Assembly (NCBI GenBank): GCA_017446685.1
Contig: JAFSQI010000130.1
Location: 1-34,964 of the forward strand
Direction of reading: 5' to 3'
DNA: 34,964 nucleotides
From: Butyrivibrio sp.
Lineage (GTDB): Bacteria; Bacillota; Clostridia; Lachnospirales; Lachnospiraceae
The stretch's first letter is position 1. The number at the start of each line of letters is the position of its first letter. Below, piece after piece: positions 1 to 34,765 of this stretch. A model generated the notes under the pieces. The model did not search any database. It was not told where the DNA came from and was given only the letters and a program-made list of their open reading frames with translations. A program made the translations under genes and the position numbers.

Positions 1-63
1 CAACGTTGAAATGAAGCTTGTTCTTGTATTTGAATCTTTATGAATTACGACGCATGTGCAGAT

Positions 64-92
64 CACTTAGCGAGGTTTTTTCGAGCTTAGTG
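64..92. repeat. imperfect inverted repeat in the AT-rich upstream region
   Basis: CACTTAGC at 64-71 pairs with GCTTAGTG at 85-92, with one T-T mismatch in the stem and a T-rich loop. It stands in the otherwise featureless first 200 bases, in which I see no supportable gene on either strand. It may be the tail of an upstream transcription unit or an intergenic repeat. No function can be assigned. Confidence 0.3.
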
Positions 93-203
93 AAATGTCA
101 TACAGCGTAGACGAAAACAAGCATTTATGTCCGCTTATATAATTAGGCTGACAACTGAATTGTAACGGGCTTTTAAAAAAATAATTTTTTTTAAAAAAAG
201 TAC

Positions 204-28161: not shown

Positions 28162-29574
28162 GTGAAGAAGAAAGATATTTTAGAAGGAATAGTAAAAAGG
28201 GTAGAATTCCCTAATAAAGGAATAGTAGAAACCGCTGAAGGAAAAGTCCTTGTTAAAGGTGTACTTCCAGAACAGAAGGTTTCGGTTCAGATTCAGAAAG
28301 TCAGAAAAGATCGCGCAGAGGGCAGACTCTTGGAAGTATTGGAGGAGCCCTCTGATTCTATTGAAAGTCCATGTATACACTTTGGTAAGTGTGGTGGATG
28401 CAGCTATCTTACCATGCCTTATGTCAAGGAGCTGGGACTTAAAGAGCAACAGGTTAAGACTCTTTTAAAACCTGCTTTTGACCGTCAGGTGTCAAAATGT
28501 ACATGGGAGGGTATTAAGACAAGCCCTATTAAATTTGCTTACAGAAACAAGATGGAGTTTACCTTTGGCGATGAAGTCATGGGTGGTCCTCTTTGCCTTG
28601 GTATGCATAAAAGAGGCAGTTTTTATGACATAGTTACTGTAAGCGGGTGCAGAATAGTTGATGACGACTATAGAGCAATTATTTCAGCTACAATTGACTA
28701 CTTTGCTTCCATGTATGAGAAAAAAGAGATCTCATTTTATCATAGAATGAAGCAGTCAGGCTATTTGAGACATCTCCTTGTCAGGAAAGCTGTAAGAACA
28801 GGTGATATACTGATTGATCTTATTACAACTACGCAGGAAGAACATGACCTGTCAGGTTACAAGGATATGCTTCTTTCCCTGACTTTGGCAGGCAGAATTG
28901 TTGGAGTCCTTCATACAAAGAACGATTCACTTGCTGATGCTGTTATTGATGAAGGTACAGAAATTTTGTATGGTCAGGATTATTTTTATGAGTATCTGCT
29001 GGGATTAAAGTTTAGGATTACACCTTTTTCTTTTTTCCAGACCAACTCCTTAAGCGCTGAGGTTCTTTATCAGACTGTAAGAGGCTATATTAAGAGCCTT
29101 TATGATCAGAAAAAAATCAATCATGACGGAGTAATCTATGATCTTTACTCAGGTACAGGTACAATTTCTCAGCTTCTTGCGCCGGTAGCAAATAAAGTCA
29201 TAGGTGTTGAAATTGTTGAAGAGGCAGTTGAAGCAGCCAAGGAGAATGCAAGACTAAATAACCTTGATAACTGTGAGTTTATTGCTGGCGATGTTCTTAA
29301 GGTCCTTGATGAGATTACGGATAGGCCTGATCTAATAATACTTGATCCTCCGCGTGATGGCATAAATCCAAAAGCCCTTCAAAAGATTATCGGCTATGGT
29401 GTTCCCTACATGATTTATGTATCCTGTAAGCCTACCAGCCTCGCCAGAGACCTGGAAATACTGCAGAACAGCGGATATGTCATGACCAGAGCTGTTGCGG
29501 TTGATCAATTCCCGTGGACAAGCCATGTGGAAACCGTCGTCCTGTTAACGAAGACAAGCGGTAGCGAAGGCTGA
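28162..29574 (+). CDS. rlmD: 23S rRNA (uracil-C5)-methyltransferase, RumA/RlmD family
   Basis: The enzyme makes 5-methyluridine in 23S rRNA (U1939, and in some Firmicutes also U747 as RlmCD), using SAM and a 4Fe-4S cluster. A TRAM-like domain occupies about 5-60. The cluster cysteines are Cys71, Cys77, Cys80 (CX5CX2C) and probably Cys163. The SAM motif is DLYSGTGT (about 327), and the catalytic Cys422 lies in YVSCKPTSLARDL after DPPRDGINPKAL. It starts with GTG at 28162, 10 bases after the previous gene. The last 51 bases of the gene are part of a direct repeat also found at 31276. Its C-terminus (KTSGSEG) extends past the usual HVETVVLL end. Confidence 0.93.
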   Translation: MKKKDILEGIVKRVEFPNKGIVETAEGKVLVKGVLPEQKVSVQIQKVRKDRAEGRLLEVLEEPSDSIESPCIHFGKCGGCSYLTMPYVKELGLKEQQVKTLLKPAFDRQVSKCTWEGIKTSPIKFAYRNKMEFTFGDEVMGGPLCLGMHKRGSFYDIVTVSGCRIVDDDYRAIISATIDYFASMYEKKEISFYHRMKQSGYLRHLLVRKAVRTGDILIDLITTTQEEHDLSGYKDMLLSLTLAGRIVGVLHTKNDSLADAVIDEGTEILYGQDYFYEYLLGLKFRITPFSFFQTNSLSAEVLYQTVRGYIKSLYDQKKINHDGVIYDLYSGTGTISQLLAPVANKVIGVEIVEEAVEAAKENARLNNLDNCEFIAGDVLKVLDEITDRPDLIILDPPRDGINPKALQKIIGYGVPYMIYVSCKPTSLARDLEILQNSGYVMTRAVAVDQFPWTSHVETVVLLTKTSGSEG

Positions 29575-29653
29575 GTGTTACAGGCGCGGTTGTTCTGGCG
29601 AGCCCCGCTTTTGGGGGCGAGAGCAGAACTTCCTTGTGAAATAGTGGTGGGAC
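29524..29653 (+). repeat. left copy of 130-bp rlmD-tail direct repeat
   Basis: It begins inside the rlmD His-Val-Glu codons, passes through the stop codon at 29572-29574 and ends at GTGGGAC (29653). By eye 119 of 130 positions match the copy at 31276, with no gaps. The noncoding part can fold: GTTCTG/CAGAAC closes an inner GCCCC/GGGGC hairpin, and CCTG-TAAC pairs with GTTACAGG around the rlmD stop codon. Confidence 0.85.
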
Positions 29654-29722
29654 ACCATGGGAGTTTGAGAAGGGGAAAAAGGAGATTTGTAGACTAAAAG
29701 ACCTCGTTGAGGGGGGAACAAT

Positions 29723-30160
29723 ATGCTAAGTATATATTTTGGTGAAAAAGAAAATGTAATGCATGGTCCATCATGGTTCAGATTTAATTACGAAGATGAA
29801 TGGCTGGCAGATCCTTTTGTGAAAGAGATGATGACTGATATAGATAAGTCGCACTATAAAGGAGGACAGCTAATTGAAAGTGATGTTCTTGGACCCATTC
29901 CACCGGAGAGACTTTCTGGTGGTCTACAGACACTTATTTGCATCTATAAAAGACCGGATCTTATTTTTAATGCCACAAGTTGCGGAGAGAATTGTGCTAA
30001 ATGGCTTGCGGAGATTGGCAGAAGAGAGAATGTCACTGTTAATCTTAAATACTATATGCCTTTTGATGATTGCGGTGATATAGAGTTTGAGATTCTTAAT
30101 GAGAATATCATAGTGACAAATACAAAAGATTATATGCATATAGCGTTAAAATATGTTTGA
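29723..30160 (+). CDS. DUF4869 domain-containing protein
   Basis: This 145-residue soluble protein of unknown function opens with MLSIYFGE, and further along has DEWLADPFVKEMMTDIDKS, LSGGLQTLICIYKRP and FNATSCGENCAKWLAEI, which I recognise as the DUF4869 family of Firmicutes. No catalytic motif, signal peptide or membrane segment is visible. A CxxxC pair (SCGENCAKW) could bind metal or form a disulfide. A very strong GAGGGGGG site precedes ATG 29723, partly inside a small CCTC/GAGG hairpin. It lies 21 bases before the ATPase gene, within the direct-repeat cassette, so the two probably act together. Confidence 0.75.
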   Translation: MLSIYFGEKENVMHGPSWFRFNYEDEWLADPFVKEMMTDIDKSHYKGGQLIESDVLGPIPPERLSGGLQTLICIYKRPDLIFNATSCGENCAKWLAEIGRRENVTVNLKYYMPFDDCGDIEFEILNENIIVTNTKDYMHIALKYV

Positions 30161-30181
30161 TGTCTGGAAAGTGCTTCATAT

Positions 30182-31159
30182 ATGAAGAATAAACATCATG
30201 TAATTGTTGAATCAAAGCGACTTAAATATGAATTTGACATAAAGAGGAATATTACTGTCATTCAAGGCGATAGTGCTTCTGGAAAGACTACACTTTTGGA
30301 TCTTTTGGGTACACATTCAAGATACGGAAAAGAAAGTGGCATTAATGTACAGTCAGATGTTCCTTGTGTGGTATTTGGTGGAGATGCTGTTCTTTGGAAG
30401 ACGATTTTAGAAGTCTATCAAGATAGCATAGTATTTATCGATGAGGATTATCAATTCATATATTCCAAAGATTTTGCGGAGTTGGTACAGGGTTCTTCCA
30501 ATTATTTTGTTTTGATTACAAGACAGCCTCTCTATAATCTGCCATATAGCATTCAGGAAATATATGGAATCAGAACAACGGGTAAATACCACTATCCGGA
30601 GCAAGTCTACCATGAGTTTTACAGAATTTATAATGATTCAAGTGAAGCTTTGGGTAAAGAAGTCCTGGTGATGGTAGAAGACTCAAAATCCGGATATCAG
30701 TTCTTTTCTAAGGTATGTAAGAATGGTGAGTGTGTAAGTGTAGAAGGAAACTCACAGTTTGTTGGGAAAATCGAGAATGTTGAAGAAAATAAGAAGGTGG
30801 TTGTAATTGCTGACGGTGCAGCCTTTGGCGCTTATGTTGCCAAGGTGACTACTATAGCAAAGAGCAGAAAAGATGTAATGCTTTATTTCCCTGAGTCATT
30901 TGAATGGCTGATTCTCAAGTCCGGAATAATAGGGATAAAGGACTTGGATGCTATATTAGCTGAGCCGGAGAAATATATTGACAGCAGGGAGTTCTTTAGC
31001 TGGGAGAGATATTTTACTGATCTGCTTATTACAGCAACTGCTGGTGATAGCATAAAGAAATATGATAAGAGCCAGTTGAAGCCGTATTATCTTGATGGAA
31101 AAAACAAAGATGCTATTATTGCTGTTCTTCCTGAAGAGTTAAGAAAAATCATGGCGTAA
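30182..31159 (+). CDS. P-loop ATPase/GTPase-like protein of unknown function
   Basis: The 325-residue product has a clear Walker A motif GDSASGKTT (29-37) after a short beta-rich start, a Walker B-like strand SIVFIDED (about 85-92) and a sensor-like strand YFVLITRQ (about 110-117). The second half (about 150-325) has a Rossmann-like feel (KVVVIADGAAFGAYVAKV) and no motif I recognise. There is no ABC signature and no HTH, transmembrane or nuclease motif. I recall similar proteins next to DUF4869 genes, sometimes carrying misleading annotations, but I cannot verify this. The gene ends 116 bases before the right direct repeat. A regulatory, defence or toxin-antitoxin-like role are all possible and unproved. 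Confidence 0.7.
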   Translation: MKNKHHVIVESKRLKYEFDIKRNITVIQGDSASGKTTLLDLLGTHSRYGKESGINVQSDVPCVVFGGDAVLWKTILEVYQDSIVFIDEDYQFIYSKDFAELVQGSSNYFVLITRQPLYNLPYSIQEIYGIRTTGKYHYPEQVYHEFYRIYNDSSEALGKEVLVMVEDSKSGYQFFSKVCKNGECVSVEGNSQFVGKIENVEENKKVVVIADGAAFGAYVAKVTTIAKSRKDVMLYFPESFEWLILKSGIIGIKDLDAILAEPEKYIDSREFFSWERYFTDLLITATAGDSIKKYDKSQLKPYYLDGKNKDAIIAVLPEELRKIMA

Positions 31160-31248
31160 ATGGTCTTTTTTGTCCGCTATTTCTTACCCCACGCGCCCCA
31201 AACCATGTAAAAAGTGGTAAACCTACCTGGTGCCTTATCCTCCGCAGT

Positions 31249-31326
31249 ATGTTTAAATTTTATGCAGTAGTACCGCATGTTGAAACCATCGTCCTGTTAA
31301 CGAAGACAAGCGTTAGCGAAGGCTGA
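31249..31326 (+). pseudogene. remnant of a second rlmD-like 3' end
   Basis: A 25-codon frame from ATG 31249 ends VVPHVETIVLLTKTSVSEG and then stops, matching the last 16 codons of rlmD except for changes Val to Ile and Gly to Val. The codons before the repeat do not match rlmD. No ribosome binding site is seen. It reads as a displaced or carried-in copy of the rlmD C-terminus rather than a functional gene. Confidence 0.65.
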
Positions 31327-31405
31327 GTGTTACAGGCGCGGTTGTTCTGGCAAACCCTGTATTTTGGGGCGAGAGCAGAACTTCCTTGTGAAAAAGCGGT
31401 GGGAC
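31276..31405 (+). repeat. right copy of 130-bp rlmD-tail direct repeat
   Basis: It is colinear with 29524-29653 and has 11 differences, six of which fall in the short GCCCC/GGGGC hairpin region (31350-31369). The outer GTTCTG/CAGAAC stem is unchanged, and the inner stem is kept partly by a T-G pair (CCCT/GGGG). This pattern suggests selection for a fold, or simply faster drift in the loop. Confidence 0.85.
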
Positions 31406-31617
31406 GGCATGCGATAGCTGTTCCAATTACGATTTAATGATTTTATGTGCGATCCGCCTGTCTGGCGGACTGCTACTATTCTTTCATTCGAAAGATAGGC
31501 AGTGATAATTACTTATCTGATTGCTGCTGATATTCCAAAGTTTAACTTCAATTGGCCTGATTTCTGCTACCTGAGCAATTTTTGCAATAGTGGCAGTTGA
31601 TTATTCAGGGATGCGTC

Positions 31618-31865
31618 TGCCTATATTCTGTAGCCTGTTGGTATAGGCAGTTGATTATACGGGGTGGTGTCTGCCTATATGCCAGGAGTGGCATTTGGTA
31701 GCAGTAAATTGTTGCTGAAAAACAATGCCTATATTGCGAACAAACTGGATATAGGCAGAACAGCCAATGAAAAATGCAATGCCTAAATTGCGAATAAACT
31801 GTATATAGGCAGAATTACCGTTGGAAAAGGCACTGCCCCCTATTGGGCATACTCTGATATAGGCA
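31618..31865. repeat. array of five hairpins with exact 54-nt period
   Basis: Units start at 31618, 31672, 31726, 31780 and 31834, each with TGCC or TGCCTA at the left arm. Right arms are TATAGGCAG (31642), a diverged GTAGCAG (31698), ATATAGGCA (31749), ATATAGGCA (31803) and ATATAGGCA (31857). Units 3 and 4 match at 32 of their first 35 bases, including the loop TGCGAACAAACTGG. Other units keep the arms but differ in loop and linker. Looser relatives may lie at 31471 and 31565 (CTGCTAC/GTGGCAG). The plus strand is not open. No cas genes or uniform repeats are present, so this is not CRISPR. Confidence 0.75.
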
Positions 31866-31891
31866 TGAAGTTTAGAACAATTATCACTCCC

Positions 31892-32060
31892 CCATAAAAA
31901 CAACAAGCAAACATAACAACAATAAAAAGAAAGAGCAAGCAAAAATTGCAACAATAAAAAATAACAGCAAGCAAAAGCAACAGCAAGCAAAAATAACAAC
32001 AATAAAAACAACAGCAAGCAAAAGCAACAACAAACAATACAGAAATATCAAAAACAAAAA
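31892..32060. repeat. A/C-rich low-complexity tract upstream of the nuclease-like gene
   Basis: About 170 bases almost devoid of T and poor in G on the plus strand, made of shuffled words such as AGCAAGCAAAA, AACAACAATAAAAA and CAACAGCAAGC. As RNA it would be unstructured. It directly precedes the AAAGGAG site of the gene at 32080 and could be its 5' untranslated region. Confidence 0.7.
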
Positions 32061-32079
32061 AGAACCATAAAAGGAGAAT

Positions 32080-32892
32080 TTGAAAGAAATGTTAGGACTA
32101 AAGAAATACTTAATTGCAGAAGAGGAAAGACTAAATAAAATCAAACAAGTTATAGATAAAAGGCTTATCGATATACCTGAGGGTAATCTGAGGATAACAT
32201 CATCCGGCAAACATATTCAGTATATGCATTGCAAAGAAAAGGATGGCAAGTACCAGAAACAAGGAGAATATCTTAAGAAAGAAAACATGTCTCTTGTAAG
32301 GGCATTGGCTCAAAAGTCTTATGATCAGAAGATGAAAAAATTGGTAGATAGGAGACTTAAGCAAATCCAGATTATTAGTAAGGAGTACTTAGATGATGAG
32401 ATTGAACTTATCTATACCAATATGAACATCAATAGACAGGCTCTGGTAACACCTGTAGAAAAGATATGGCAGCAGAAAGTGGCTGATTGGAAATCAATTC
32501 CATATACAGGAAAAGCGTTTGATGAAGGTATACCTGAAATATATACCAAAAAAGGAGAGAGGGTAAGATCAAAGTCAGAAAAGCTGATTGCAGATACTTT
32601 ATTGGAGAGTGGAATTGAATATAAGTATGAATGCCCAATCAGTTTAAAAGGCTATGGATTGGTATATCCGGACTTTACAATTCTCAGCCGCAAGATAGGA
32701 AAAGAAATGTATTGGGAGCATGATGGAAGAATGGATGATTCCAAATACTCCGAAAAAGCAGTAAGGAAGATCAATTCGTATATTTATAATGGAATAATAC
32801 CCGGGGATAGACTAATGCTTACATTTGAGACATCAAGCACTGTGCTCAATGACAGAACAATAAAGAAAATGATTGATAATTTCCTGCTATAA
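32080..32892 (+). CDS. PD-(D/E)XK-type nuclease-like protein
   Basis: The 270-residue product belongs to a family I recall as frequent, often multicopy, in Lachnospiraceae. An N-terminal helical part (about 1-120) has LIDIPEGNLRITSSGKHIQY. The C-terminal part resembles a PD-(D/E)XK fold: RSKSEKLIADTLLE with Glu167, then VYPDFTIL with Asp198, then YWEHDG with Glu213, and MDDSKYSEKAVRKINSY. The usual xK after Glu213 is replaced by His214-Asp215, where relatives as I remember them have EHFG. Nuclease activity is therefore inferred. The start is TTG 32080 (3 bases after GGAG) or ATG 32089 (12 bases); neither spacing is ideal. Confidence 0.7.
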   Translation: MKEMLGLKKYLIAEEERLNKIKQVIDKRLIDIPEGNLRITSSGKHIQYMHCKEKDGKYQKQGEYLKKENMSLVRALAQKSYDQKMKKLVDRRLKQIQIISKEYLDDEIELIYTNMNINRQALVTPVEKIWQQKVADWKSIPYTGKAFDEGIPEIYTKKGERVRSKSEKLIADTLLESGIEYKYECPISLKGYGLVYPDFTILSRKIGKEMYWEHDGRMDDSKYSEKAVRKINSYIYNGIIPGDRLMLTFETSSTVLNDRTIKKMIDNFLL

Positions 32893-32918
32893 TACTTAGA
32901 GAAAAAATGAAAAGCCTG

Positions 32919-32949
32919 TTGACTCTTCCCTTAGGAAATCCCTTAAGGT
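32919..32949 (+). promoter_or_regulatory. MerR-type promoter/operator
   Basis: TTGACT (32919-32924), a long 19-base spacer and TAAGGT (32944-32949). The spacer contains the dyad TTCC-CTTA-GGAA (32926-32937). A 19-20-base spacer with an internal dyad is the hallmark of MerR-regulated promoters, and these two hexamers equal those of the classical mercury merT promoter. It directly precedes a MerR-family gene, so autoregulation is likely. Confidence 0.55.
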
Positions 32950-32980
32950 GGTTTTATAAACAAATAAGGAGGTTCCAAAA

Positions 32981-34162
32981 ATGGAAAAGAAAATGACATC
33001 AGGAGAAATGGCAAAGAAAGCTGGAGTATCACAGAAGGCAATACGTCTTTATGATGAAAAAGGGCTACTTAAACCCACCGAATACTCTGAAGGTAACTAT
33101 CGTCTTTACGATGACGCAGCACTGCAGATTTTGGAAAAGATTGTGGCACTTAAGCAGATAGGGTTTTCCCTCGAAGAAATCAGAGATAATCTAAAGAGTG
33201 GTGAAGCCAGTGACATTAAGGGCGCGCTGGAAATTCAGCTTCAGAAGATGGAGGAAAAGAAATATCAACTGGAGAAGATCACTGACGCAATTAAAAGAAC
33301 TTTGGCACGAAAGGAAGAACTTGACTGGGATGACGTTGCAGAAATCGTACAGTATGTAAGTGCTGACCAGTCTGCTGATGAGCGCCACTGGGATGCACTG
33401 AAGCATACAAGCGGAGAACTTGACTGGTATGTGAGAATCTTCAATTCTCTTGATCTTAAAGACGGAAAAAGAGTTCTTGATCTGGGATGCGGATACGCTA
33501 AGCTCTGGAGAAACAATTGGACTAACATTCCAAAGGAAACAAAGATTACAGGGTATGACATTCACGGCAGCTGGGCAGATGATTTTGCAAGGTTCATTCC
33601 TGAGAACAAAGATAAACTGCCTGAAGGCGCAGACATTAAGCTTGAATTTGCAGATCTTGAGGATGAGAAGACCTGGGATAAGATTGATGAAAATGGCGAA
33701 TATGACGTAGTTATAGCTCATTACCTTGATTCTGAGATAAAAGATATCGAAGCTATCGTGGCACATGCCAGCAAGGTAGTCGCAGAGGATGGTCTGTTTT
33801 CTTTCAACGGTGCTAACGTGGCAAACTGGAATAATCTCTTTAAAGAAGCTATTGAAGCTATAGGTGAAGACTCATCATTCATAGATGAAACAGTAGCTGG
33901 TCAGACAGAGAAGAGAAATCAGTATATATCCATGATGGAGAAATATTTTGCAAGGGTGGAGTCAGTTCTTTTGCCTAATTTTTGGCATTACACTAAGGCA
34001 AAAGAAATCGTGGAGAAGATGAAGGATTACTACAGGGCTCATGAGAAAGCTATTGCCGGATATGAGAACAAGCTCCTTGCATATTTTGAAGATAAAATTG
34101 AAAAAGACGGTGAGTTTGTGCTTGAGGCAAGAAGCCAGTTCTGGCATTGCTATAAAAAGTGA
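32981..34162 (+). CDS. MerR-family regulator fused to a SAM-dependent methyltransferase
   Basis: The 393-residue protein has an N-terminal MerR winged helix (about 1-72: MTSGEMAKKAGVSQKAIRLY, then GLLKPTEY and NYRLYDDAAL) and a dimerisation coiled coil (about 75-112). A class I methyltransferase domain (about 125-300) follows, with SAM motif I GKRVLDLGCG at 160-169, an acidic second strand GYDIHG and a fourth strand EYDVVIAHYLD. Instead of binding a drug or metal, the effector domain could sense SAM or a methylation substrate, which is inference. AAGGAGG at 32966-32972 is an excellent site. The gene lies after a mer-like promoter and before a terminator-like hairpin pair. Confidence 0.85.
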   Translation: MEKKMTSGEMAKKAGVSQKAIRLYDEKGLLKPTEYSEGNYRLYDDAALQILEKIVALKQIGFSLEEIRDNLKSGEASDIKGALEIQLQKMEEKKYQLEKITDAIKRTLARKEELDWDDVAEIVQYVSADQSADERHWDALKHTSGELDWYVRIFNSLDLKDGKRVLDLGCGYAKLWRNNWTNIPKETKITGYDIHGSWADDFARFIPENKDKLPEGADIKLEFADLEDEKTWDKIDENGEYDVVIAHYLDSEIKDIEAIVAHASKVVAEDGLFSFNGANVANWNNLFKEAIEAIGEDSSFIDETVAGQTEKRNQYISMMEKYFARVESVLLPNFWHYTKAKEIVEKMKDYYRAHEKAIAGYENKLLAYFEDKIEKDGEFVLEARSQFWHCYKK

Positions 34163-34290: not shown

Positions 34291-34765
34291 ATGAAAGTGC
34301 TTGTAATTCCGGATATACATTTAAAATCCTGGATATTTGACAGGGCAGAGAAAATCTCAGATTGCATTTATACATCGGATTGATAATGTACTATTTATGC
34401 ATGGTGGGTTGACTGCAGAGTATGTCAGCAGATTAAATTCTGAATTATTGGATGCAGATATAGATGAGGTTTTGGAAGCAGTAAACAGTGCATCAGATAA
34501 ATACCTATGGAATGATGAATCACCGCTTTGGTACAGACCACAGGACAAGGAGACGGAGGCCTTTAGAAAGGAAATCTATACGCAGGTGGTTGGCCACACT
34601 CCGGTTAAGGAAATCTATGAGAAGAACGGTTTCATTTCTACGGATGTCTTTTCAGCATATAGCGATGGAAGGCAGATTGGGGAATCAGCTATGATCATCA
34701 TTGATACTGAAACTAGGAAATACGAAAAGGTTCCAGTTATGGGGAAACTTGGATATAAAGTTTGA
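34291..34765 (+). pseudogene. calcineurin-like metallophosphoesterase, internally deleted and frameshifted
   Basis: The first frame starts at ATG 34291 with KVLVIPDIHLKSWIFDRAEK, a typical phosphoesterase start with the D-x-H metal motif, then reaches a stop at 34383. The +1 frame continues as QIAFIHRIDNVLFMHGGL and VVGHTPVKEIYEKNG, the C-terminal family motifs (GG...VxGHT/P), to a stop at 34765. The part that should lie between, including the GNHD motif, is missing, so about 70-90 residues seem to be deleted near 34345-34355 with a frame change. It cannot make an active enzyme. GGAAGGGG precedes the start, so a short product may still be translated. Confidence 0.8.

What the first reader, a model, noticed from the sequence alone, without database searches (positions are those of the whole stretch)
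29524..31405. Two-gene cassette bracketed by 130-bp direct repeats copied from the 3' end of rlmD
The repeats are the same length, gap-free and about 92% identical by direct count (119/130). They start inside the rlmD coding end, and the second copy keeps the reading frame through the stop. This is what is left when an element inserts at the 3' end of a gene and restores it. The interior has no integrase, so the cassette may be mobilised in trans or be an undescribed passenger module.
Basis: partly seen in the sequence, partly recalled or inferred. Interest (0 to 1): 0.8.

Follow-up and report, generated by a model that had tools for sequence, protein, structure and literature searches.

The report
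Inserted gene pair behind rlmD gene
In this Butyrivibrio genome a two-gene cassette sits at a cut-and-paste site in the tail of a ribosome-methylating gene, carries a replacement tail for that gene, and brings two proteins that look like the two halves of one split ATPase.

Summary
The repeats 29524-29662 and 31276-31414 match at 125 of 139 positions without gaps, the second keeps the RlmD frame, and the own genome holds no third copy. Insertion is supported: relative G100 has rlmD directly followed by the block that lies right of the second repeat in the window (2690 of 2745 aligned bases identical), without cassette. Other relatives carry other genes between rlmD and displaced rlmD tails. 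The site is used by large serine recombinases (LSR): in full relatives the LSR gene runs in frame into a displaced tail (14 of 17 frames), the reciprocal tail exchange already published for streptococcal rumA (=rlmD) ICEs. The window unit has no such LSR and is best read as a CIME-like cassette in a tandem array, with a conserved 106-bp right end shared by cassettes with other cargo, often abortive-infection genes. Two things look new. DUF4869 and its ATPase partner look like a split ABC ATPase (LSGG signature in one, Walker A/B in the other). And the repeat's non-coding half is a covarying two-hairpin RNA, found in 68 of 79 genus genomes, without Rfam match.

The parts
28162..29574 (+). rlmD (rumA), 23S rRNA m5U methyltransferase; target gene, now ending in the tail ETVVLLTKTSGSEG*
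   Evidence: Pfam tRNA_U5-meth_tr E 1.1e-20; match at E 1e-60 or better in 76 of 79 genus genomes
29530..29531 (+). inferred crossover point at GA of the Glu codon in HVE|TVVLL (left junction)
   Evidence: codon-tail linkage jumps at this codon (z 9.9) and is weak or absent upstream; several sites elsewhere match the repeat from query base 7 only
29524..29662 (+). copy 1 of the 139-nt repeat: new rlmD tail plus RNA element (element-side arm, inferred P')
29552..29642 (+). two-hairpin RNA motif; hairpin 2 (GUUCUGGCGAG..CGAGAGCAGAAC) is clear, hairpin 1 is weak here and would overlap the last rlmD codons
   Evidence: covariance model R1, 47.7 bits, E 5.3e-10, with several non-pairs in hairpin 1
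29713..29713 (+). left limit of homology of the cargo module in related loci
   Evidence: alignments begin at 29713 in L123, L124, L125, L128, L131, L132; left flanks differ from the window
29723..30160 (+). DUF4869 protein, read here as a degenerate ABC signature half; LSGG at 29912-29923, its SGG invariant in the alignment
   Evidence: Pfam PF16163 E 3.1e-40; profile match to ABC heads with permuted controls
30182..31159 (+). P-loop ATPase, Walker A GDSASGKT at 30266-30289, Walker B FIDE at 30434-30445; C-terminal Rossmann/Toprim-like domain
31170..31275 (+). class A right end of the cassette (inferred P arm), conserved in elements with unrelated cargo
31276..31414 (+). copy 2 of the repeat: displaced older rlmD tail ETIVLLTKTSVSEG* plus RNA element (right junction)
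31304..31394 (+). two-hairpin RNA motif, second copy
   Evidence: model R1, 40.9 bits, E 2.6e-8
32080..32892 (+). first gene of the older downstream block; C-terminal part resembles PDC-S68 (PD-(D/E)XK-like by inspection); commonest gene behind rlmD in the genus set
   Evidence: PADLOC PDC-S68 E 4.8e-25; in 16 of 59 compared rlmD loci, the window included
32981..34162 (+). MerR regulator fused to methyltransferase, older block
   Evidence: Pfam MerR_1 E 1.9e-19; 98-99% identical DNA in the G012 and G058 islands

Best explanation
The 1752-bp unit from the first HVE|T codon of rlmD to the second is an integrase-less (CIME-like) cassette at the attachment site of large serine recombinase (LSR) elements. 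LSR crossover at GA of the Glu codon in HVE-TVVLL joins the rlmD body to the tail carried by the element (new C-terminus plus 3' RNA hairpins) and pushes the old tail to the other end. Here it was pushed in front of an older block, so two units stand in tandem. rlmD stays translatable after every event. The window unit lost, or never had, an LSR; any movement would need one acting in trans (inferred). Its cargo is a two-protein module, most likely for phage defence. The 325-aa protein supplies Walker A and B and a Rossmann/Toprim-like C-domain; DUF4869 supplies the ABC signature LSGG, so the two would build one composite ATP site and gate the C-domain. Shown: both junctions, empty site, tandem structure, right end shared by cassettes with other cargo, LSR-tail fusions in relatives, near-constant gene pairing. 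Inferred: LSR as the agent in this event, mobility in trans, split ABC ATPase, defence role.
For: Empty site: G100 rlmD tail runs straight into window 31415-34160, 2690 of 2745 aligned bases identical (86 gap columns), while rlmD itself matches at 1075 of 1373 columns. Displaced tails behind rlmD in 16 of the 44 relatives with at least 2 kb downstream. Synonymous codon choice is tied to tail class from the Glu codon on (z 9.9, 7.2, 7.7 for E, T, V) and not at codons -10 to -2 (p 0.095 or more, codon -3 invariant). LSR frames run into an ETV..LL-type tail in 14 of 17 genus and 21 of 24 order-wide full-length frames. Class A right end: 11 of 79 genomes, one each, 0 in the reversed-pattern control; the 9 whose contig also holds rlmD lie downstream of it within 14 kb (coordinates). 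No match to three LSR queries at E 1e-5 in 17 of 17 class A-D or unclassed intervals, matches in 4 of 4 class E (E was named for its LSR). Same gene pair with a class A end at rlmD of G050, between other tails. Pairing: 28 of 30 genus loci and 24 of 24 other loci. DUF4869 against ABC heads: score 37.1, best of 120 permuted controls 22.9. AbiD or AbiE next to class A or B ends.
Confidence: 0.75

Rival explanations
1. Dead remnant: the unit is what deletions left of a once autonomous LSR element and is now fixed; it no longer moves in any way.
For: No LSR inside; the left part, with the region upstream of DUF4869 in 7 related loci, is missing; the consensus promoter scan found no site between 29400 and 30086 (counts at chance level).
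Against: Both genes are open. The ATPase is 92-93% identical as protein to the nearest copies although the DNA is about 88% identical, which points to selection; DUF4869, at 88-90% as protein, does not show this. The 106-bp right end is conserved in units with different cargo.
Confidence: 0.4
2. Homologous recombination between dispersed copies of the RNA motif brought the two genes behind rlmD; no site-specific recombinase was involved.
For: The motif is dispersed in the genus: 68 of 79 genomes. In G028 and G105 the cassette right end is joined to a TGTGAAATAGTGGTGGGA-type motif end.
Against: Both window junctions lie at CATGT.GA, upstream of the RNA; right ends in front of the displaced HVET codons are shared between genomes; codon-tail linkage begins at the Glu codon, outside the hairpins.
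Confidence: 0.12
3. Composite transposon or insertion-sequence event with long terminal direct repeats.
For: Two direct repeats flank two genes.
Against: The unit's two genes match no transposase family in Pfam; the repeats start in frame inside a host gene, and tails at the same codon recur in 16 relatives with other cargo; no other copy in the own genome.
Confidence: 0.03

Closest known systems
ICEs integrated in rumA (= rlmD) by a single serine integrase, Streptococcus (Ambroset 2016, PMC4701971; passages); rumA IMEs in PMC5704250 (passages)
   Same: Same target gene; reciprocal exchange of the 3' parts of rumA and of the integrase gene, so that both proteins get new C-termini.
   Different: There the exchange changes the frame of both proteins; in Butyrivibrio the frame is kept and HVETVVLL is rebuilt. 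Paralogues of rlmD are targets too. The window unit has no integrase and no transfer genes.
CIME (cis-mobilizable element) and tandem accretion (review PMC5704250; passages)
   Same: Ends kept, integration and transfer genes absent, stands in tandem with another unit at one site.
   Different: A right end shared by units with unrelated cargo, one per genome in 11 of 79 genomes, which hints at standardised cassettes rather than random decay.
SCC / ECC cassette chromosomes (Ccr serine recombinases; ECC paper PMC6222049, abstract and outline; rlmH as SCC target recalled)
   Same: Large serine recombinases, 3' end of an rRNA methyltransferase gene, variable cargo. The related LSR of L092 has CcrB as best NCBIfam match (229 bits).
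   Different: Target rlmD and not rlmH; 229 bits is far below the CcrB cut-off of 900.
OLD, Septu and PARIS type ABC-ATPase defence proteins (kinship of these systems recalled)

Membership tests
rumA/rlmD-site LSR elements | junction at the conserved C-terminal codons of rlmD with the gene end replaced | tested here: met
rumA/rlmD-site LSR elements | encodes its own serine integrase whose gene overlaps the right junction | tested here: not met
   no LSR match in the window unit; so the unit is not filed as an ICE/IME of this type, only as a user of the same site
CIME | both end sites kept, no integration or transfer genes | tested here: met
CIME | stands in tandem with another element at the same site | tested here: met
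   older block starts at the second tail and stands alone behind rlmD in G100; its own right end is not in the window (one class A match only)
CIME | can be moved by a neighbouring element's enzyme | not testable with these tools
   needs an excision assay
SCC/ECC | Ccr-type recombinase above the curated cut-off | tested here: not met
   a related LSR (L092) scores 229 bits against a cut-off of 900; the window unit has none
Integron gene cassette | attC site and IntI tyrosine integrase | not tested
   no search for attC or IntI was run
ABC-type ATPase (as a two-protein head) | Walker A and Walker B in one subunit | tested here: met
   Walker A stretch matched by the ABC profile, prob 94 over 26 columns; G34 K35 T36 and D87 E88 invariant in 19 of 19; Walker B read by eye
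ABC-type ATPase (as a two-protein head) | LSGG signature at the start of a helix | tested here: met
   S65 G66 G67 invariant in 22 of 22; helix 66-76 in the model; hhalign prob 71, score 37.1 against at most 22.9 in 120 permuted controls
OLD-like Toprim nuclease | Toprim catalytic residues and fold in the C-domain | tested here: inconclusive
Rfam RNA families | match of the hairpin motif to a described family | tested here: not met
   no match to the repeats at E 5 or better; in five motif loci only two sub-threshold minus-strand matches beside the motif of L228 at E 1 or better

The most novel reading that the evidence does not exclude
rlmD in Butyrivibrio is a docking port for a family of integrase-less defence cassettes with standard ends (classes A-D), moved in trans by rlmD-site serine recombinases, an integron-like traffic in which every docking swaps the tail and the 3' RNA of a ribosome-modifying gene. 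One cassette type carries a split ABC-ATPase defence system, DUF4869 giving the signature motif in trans to a P-loop/Toprim-like partner.
Probability: 0.33. Interest if true: 0.82.

Novelty: new variant of a known kind. Interest (0 to 1): 0.6.

Why it matters
The integration mechanism is known, but three points are useful if true. (1) Integrase-less cassettes with a common right end and often abortive-infection cargo make rlmD a place to look for new defence genes in rumen and gut Clostridia. (2) It gives a testable role for DUF4869, a domain of unknown function whose name is in none of the 5.39 million open papers searched: the missing signature half of an ABC ATPase. (3) It uncovers a strongly covarying RNA motif in a rumen genus, without Rfam match in the searches made, that adjoins the recombination tail.

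Tried and rejected
Rfam on the repeat region and on five motif loci: no real match. BLASTN of the repeat against plasmid and phage collections: none. Composite transposon: rejected, no transposase family matched, site-specific junctions. Terminator reading of the hairpins: the consensus scan lists none at the repeats. The first regular expression for recombinases missed the LSRs; they were found from frames that end in HVET. Pfam gave no function for DUF4869 beyond its own name and NCBIfam gave no match. A sequence search of solved structures gave for the ATPase mainly P-loop proteins (best E 4.5e-5) and for DUF4869 one chance-level match. In the codon test 18 of the 89 sequences scanned (30 loci, 58 oriented regions and the window) did not match the expression used and were left out, and identical contexts were counted once (71 sites, 54 distinct). 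The 13 ABC heads were picked from fetched loci by a motif search that asked for Walker A, signature and Walker B, so they are a convenience set.

Not done: no complex prediction was possible; no viral-contig scan was run; right ends of classes B, C and D were not searched genome-wide; the Pfam scans of the 110-aa tail and of three other proteins never ran (one search failed and was not repeated). Of the 3 plasmid and 5 phage records that matched the ATPase I fetched 2 and 3.
Full report
Observation. Both keep the RlmD frame to a stop: HVETVVLLTKTSGSEG* and HVETIVLLTKTSVSEG*. The own assembly holds only these two copies at E 0.001.

Host. By that (inference), G050 is strain AE2015, G012 B. proteoclasticus P18, G016 B. 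hungatei NK4A153, G037 VCD2006, G039 VCB2006, G048 INlla21 and G014 INlla14. G100's 3,554,804-bp contig fits the B. proteoclasticus B316 chromosome as I recall it; no call names it.

Empty site. In G100 the rlmD tail is followed directly by the sequence that in the window lies right of copy 2. Window 31415-34160 matches at 2690 of 2745 aligned bases (98.0%), with 86 gap columns, while rlmD up to HVE matches at only 1075 of 1373 columns. So the 1752-bp unit is an insertion relative to G100, and the downstream block itself probably moved recently between species. Its MerR-methyltransferase part is 98-99% identical in G012 and G058.

Hotspot. rlmD was found in 76 of 79 genus genomes, and 58 relatives were cut out with the DNA behind rlmD; 44 have 2 kb or more. 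Displaced HVET tails lie downstream in 16 of these 44. At least 14 of the 76 end their contig within about 180 nt of the rlmD end or before its stop, as expected for an assembly-breaking repeat. Gene content behind rlmD varies: the commonest gene, that of window 32080-32892, is in 16 of 59 loci (window included), DUF4869 in 6, the ATPase in 3.

Crossover. Among 54 distinct rlmD ends, synonymous codon choice is tied to tail class from the Glu codon of HVE onward (z 9.9 at E, 7.2 at T, 7.7 at V) and not at codons -10 to -2 (p 0.095 or more; codon -3 invariant). Codon -1 (p 0.02) and the V codon before Glu (p 0.005) show weak linkage; the H codon does not (p 0.13). The hairpins start downstream of the E and T codons, so RNA structure does not explain the jump.

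Enzyme. Related islands end in a large serine recombinase gene (Resolvase, Recombinase, Zn_ribbon_recom in the two tested) whose frame runs into the displaced tail: 14 of 17 full-length frames in the genus, 21 of 24 order-wide, by a motif search. Some rlmD and LSR genes carry a tail of about 110 aa instead. At E 1e-60 the family is in 17 of 79 genus genomes, not in the window genome, and in 46 of 392 genomes of the order. rlmD-like paralogues are used as well (L005, L009, L011, L019). This is the reciprocal 3' exchange published for streptococcal rumA ICEs (PMC4701971, passages).

Cassettes without recombinase. Seventeen intervals with other right ends (8 class A, 4 B, 3 C, 1 D, 1 unclassed) have no match to three LSR queries; the four class E intervals, named for their LSR, do. 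Other recombinase types were not searched for in the larger intervals. The class A end is a block of about 106 bp (window 31170-31275) aligned in the window and seven others with DUF4869+ATPase, AbiD, AbiE or MerR-methyltransferase cargo inside; L063 shares only its last part. The exact pattern occurs once per genome in 11 of 79 and never in the reversed control. AbiD (L080) and AbiEi/AbiEii (L082, L105, L116; class B: L066) stand next to these ends. L099 and L063 carry other cargo; the L099 MerR-methyltransferase has weak PADLOC matches to mad1 and mad2. The same gene pair lies behind rlmD of G050 between other tails, and in G041 with a class A-like end before an HVET tail, on a contig other than that of rlmD. 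The window copy begins at 29713 and lacks the upstream region seen in seven related loci, so it may depend on read-through from rlmD (inference).

RNA motif. The non-coding half of the repeat is a two-hairpin element. Sixteen copies outside rlmD, 15 of them 55-142 nt behind the stop of an open frame of 100 aa or more, give 97.7% paired cells, 13 of 20 pairs with changes on both sides, and 44 such cells against 11.7 in shuffles. A model built only from those copies finds both window copies, at 47.7 and 40.9 bits, and a weaker third at 57-143 (32.5 bits); in the two repeat copies hairpin 2 fits well and hairpin 1 poorly. It finds matches at E 0.001 in 68 of 79 genus genomes, up to 47 per genome, counts being lower bounds. 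No Rfam family matched it.

Against. No LSR with a class A arm was found; tails left of class A units differ in type; tails are mosaic; no circular form was seen. The unit may be a dead remnant.

Papers: PMC4701971, PMC5704250 and PMC12904643 seen as passages; PMC6222049 as abstract and outline; all others only in search listings (two searches found no paper).

Noticed in passing
window 57-143, 29552-29642, 31304-31394: Two-hairpin structured RNA motif with CGAG/CGAG (possible tandem G.A) elements, in 15 of 16 aligned copies shortly behind the stop of an open frame; strong covariation, found in 68 of 79 genus genomes, no Rfam match.
   Followed up: partly
window 31592-31825: Short repeats of TGCCTATAT and GATATAGGCAG type (two 54-nt and two 35-nt copies) before a run of CAACAATAAAAACAACAGCAAGC; similar DNA follows rlmD in G012, G041 and G053.
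   Followed up: no
L124 (G028) and L133 (G105), right end of the cassette: The ATPase gene is followed by a TGTGAAATAGTGGTGGGA-type motif end instead of the class A end, as if the two had recombined at a shared TGTGAAA.AGTGGT stretch.
   Followed up: no
L107, L111, L113, L117 and other rlmD tails: RlmD with a C-terminal tail of about 110 aa (..KATYEEI..YIAQVKRK..) in place of the short tail; the same kind of tail ends some LSR proteins; NCBIfam has no family for it.
   Followed up: partly
window 34292-34765: Fragment of a gene similar to a 258-aa protein (MKVLVIPDIHLKSW..) that recurs in 7 of 59 rlmD islands, the window included; in the window its middle is missing.
   Followed up: no
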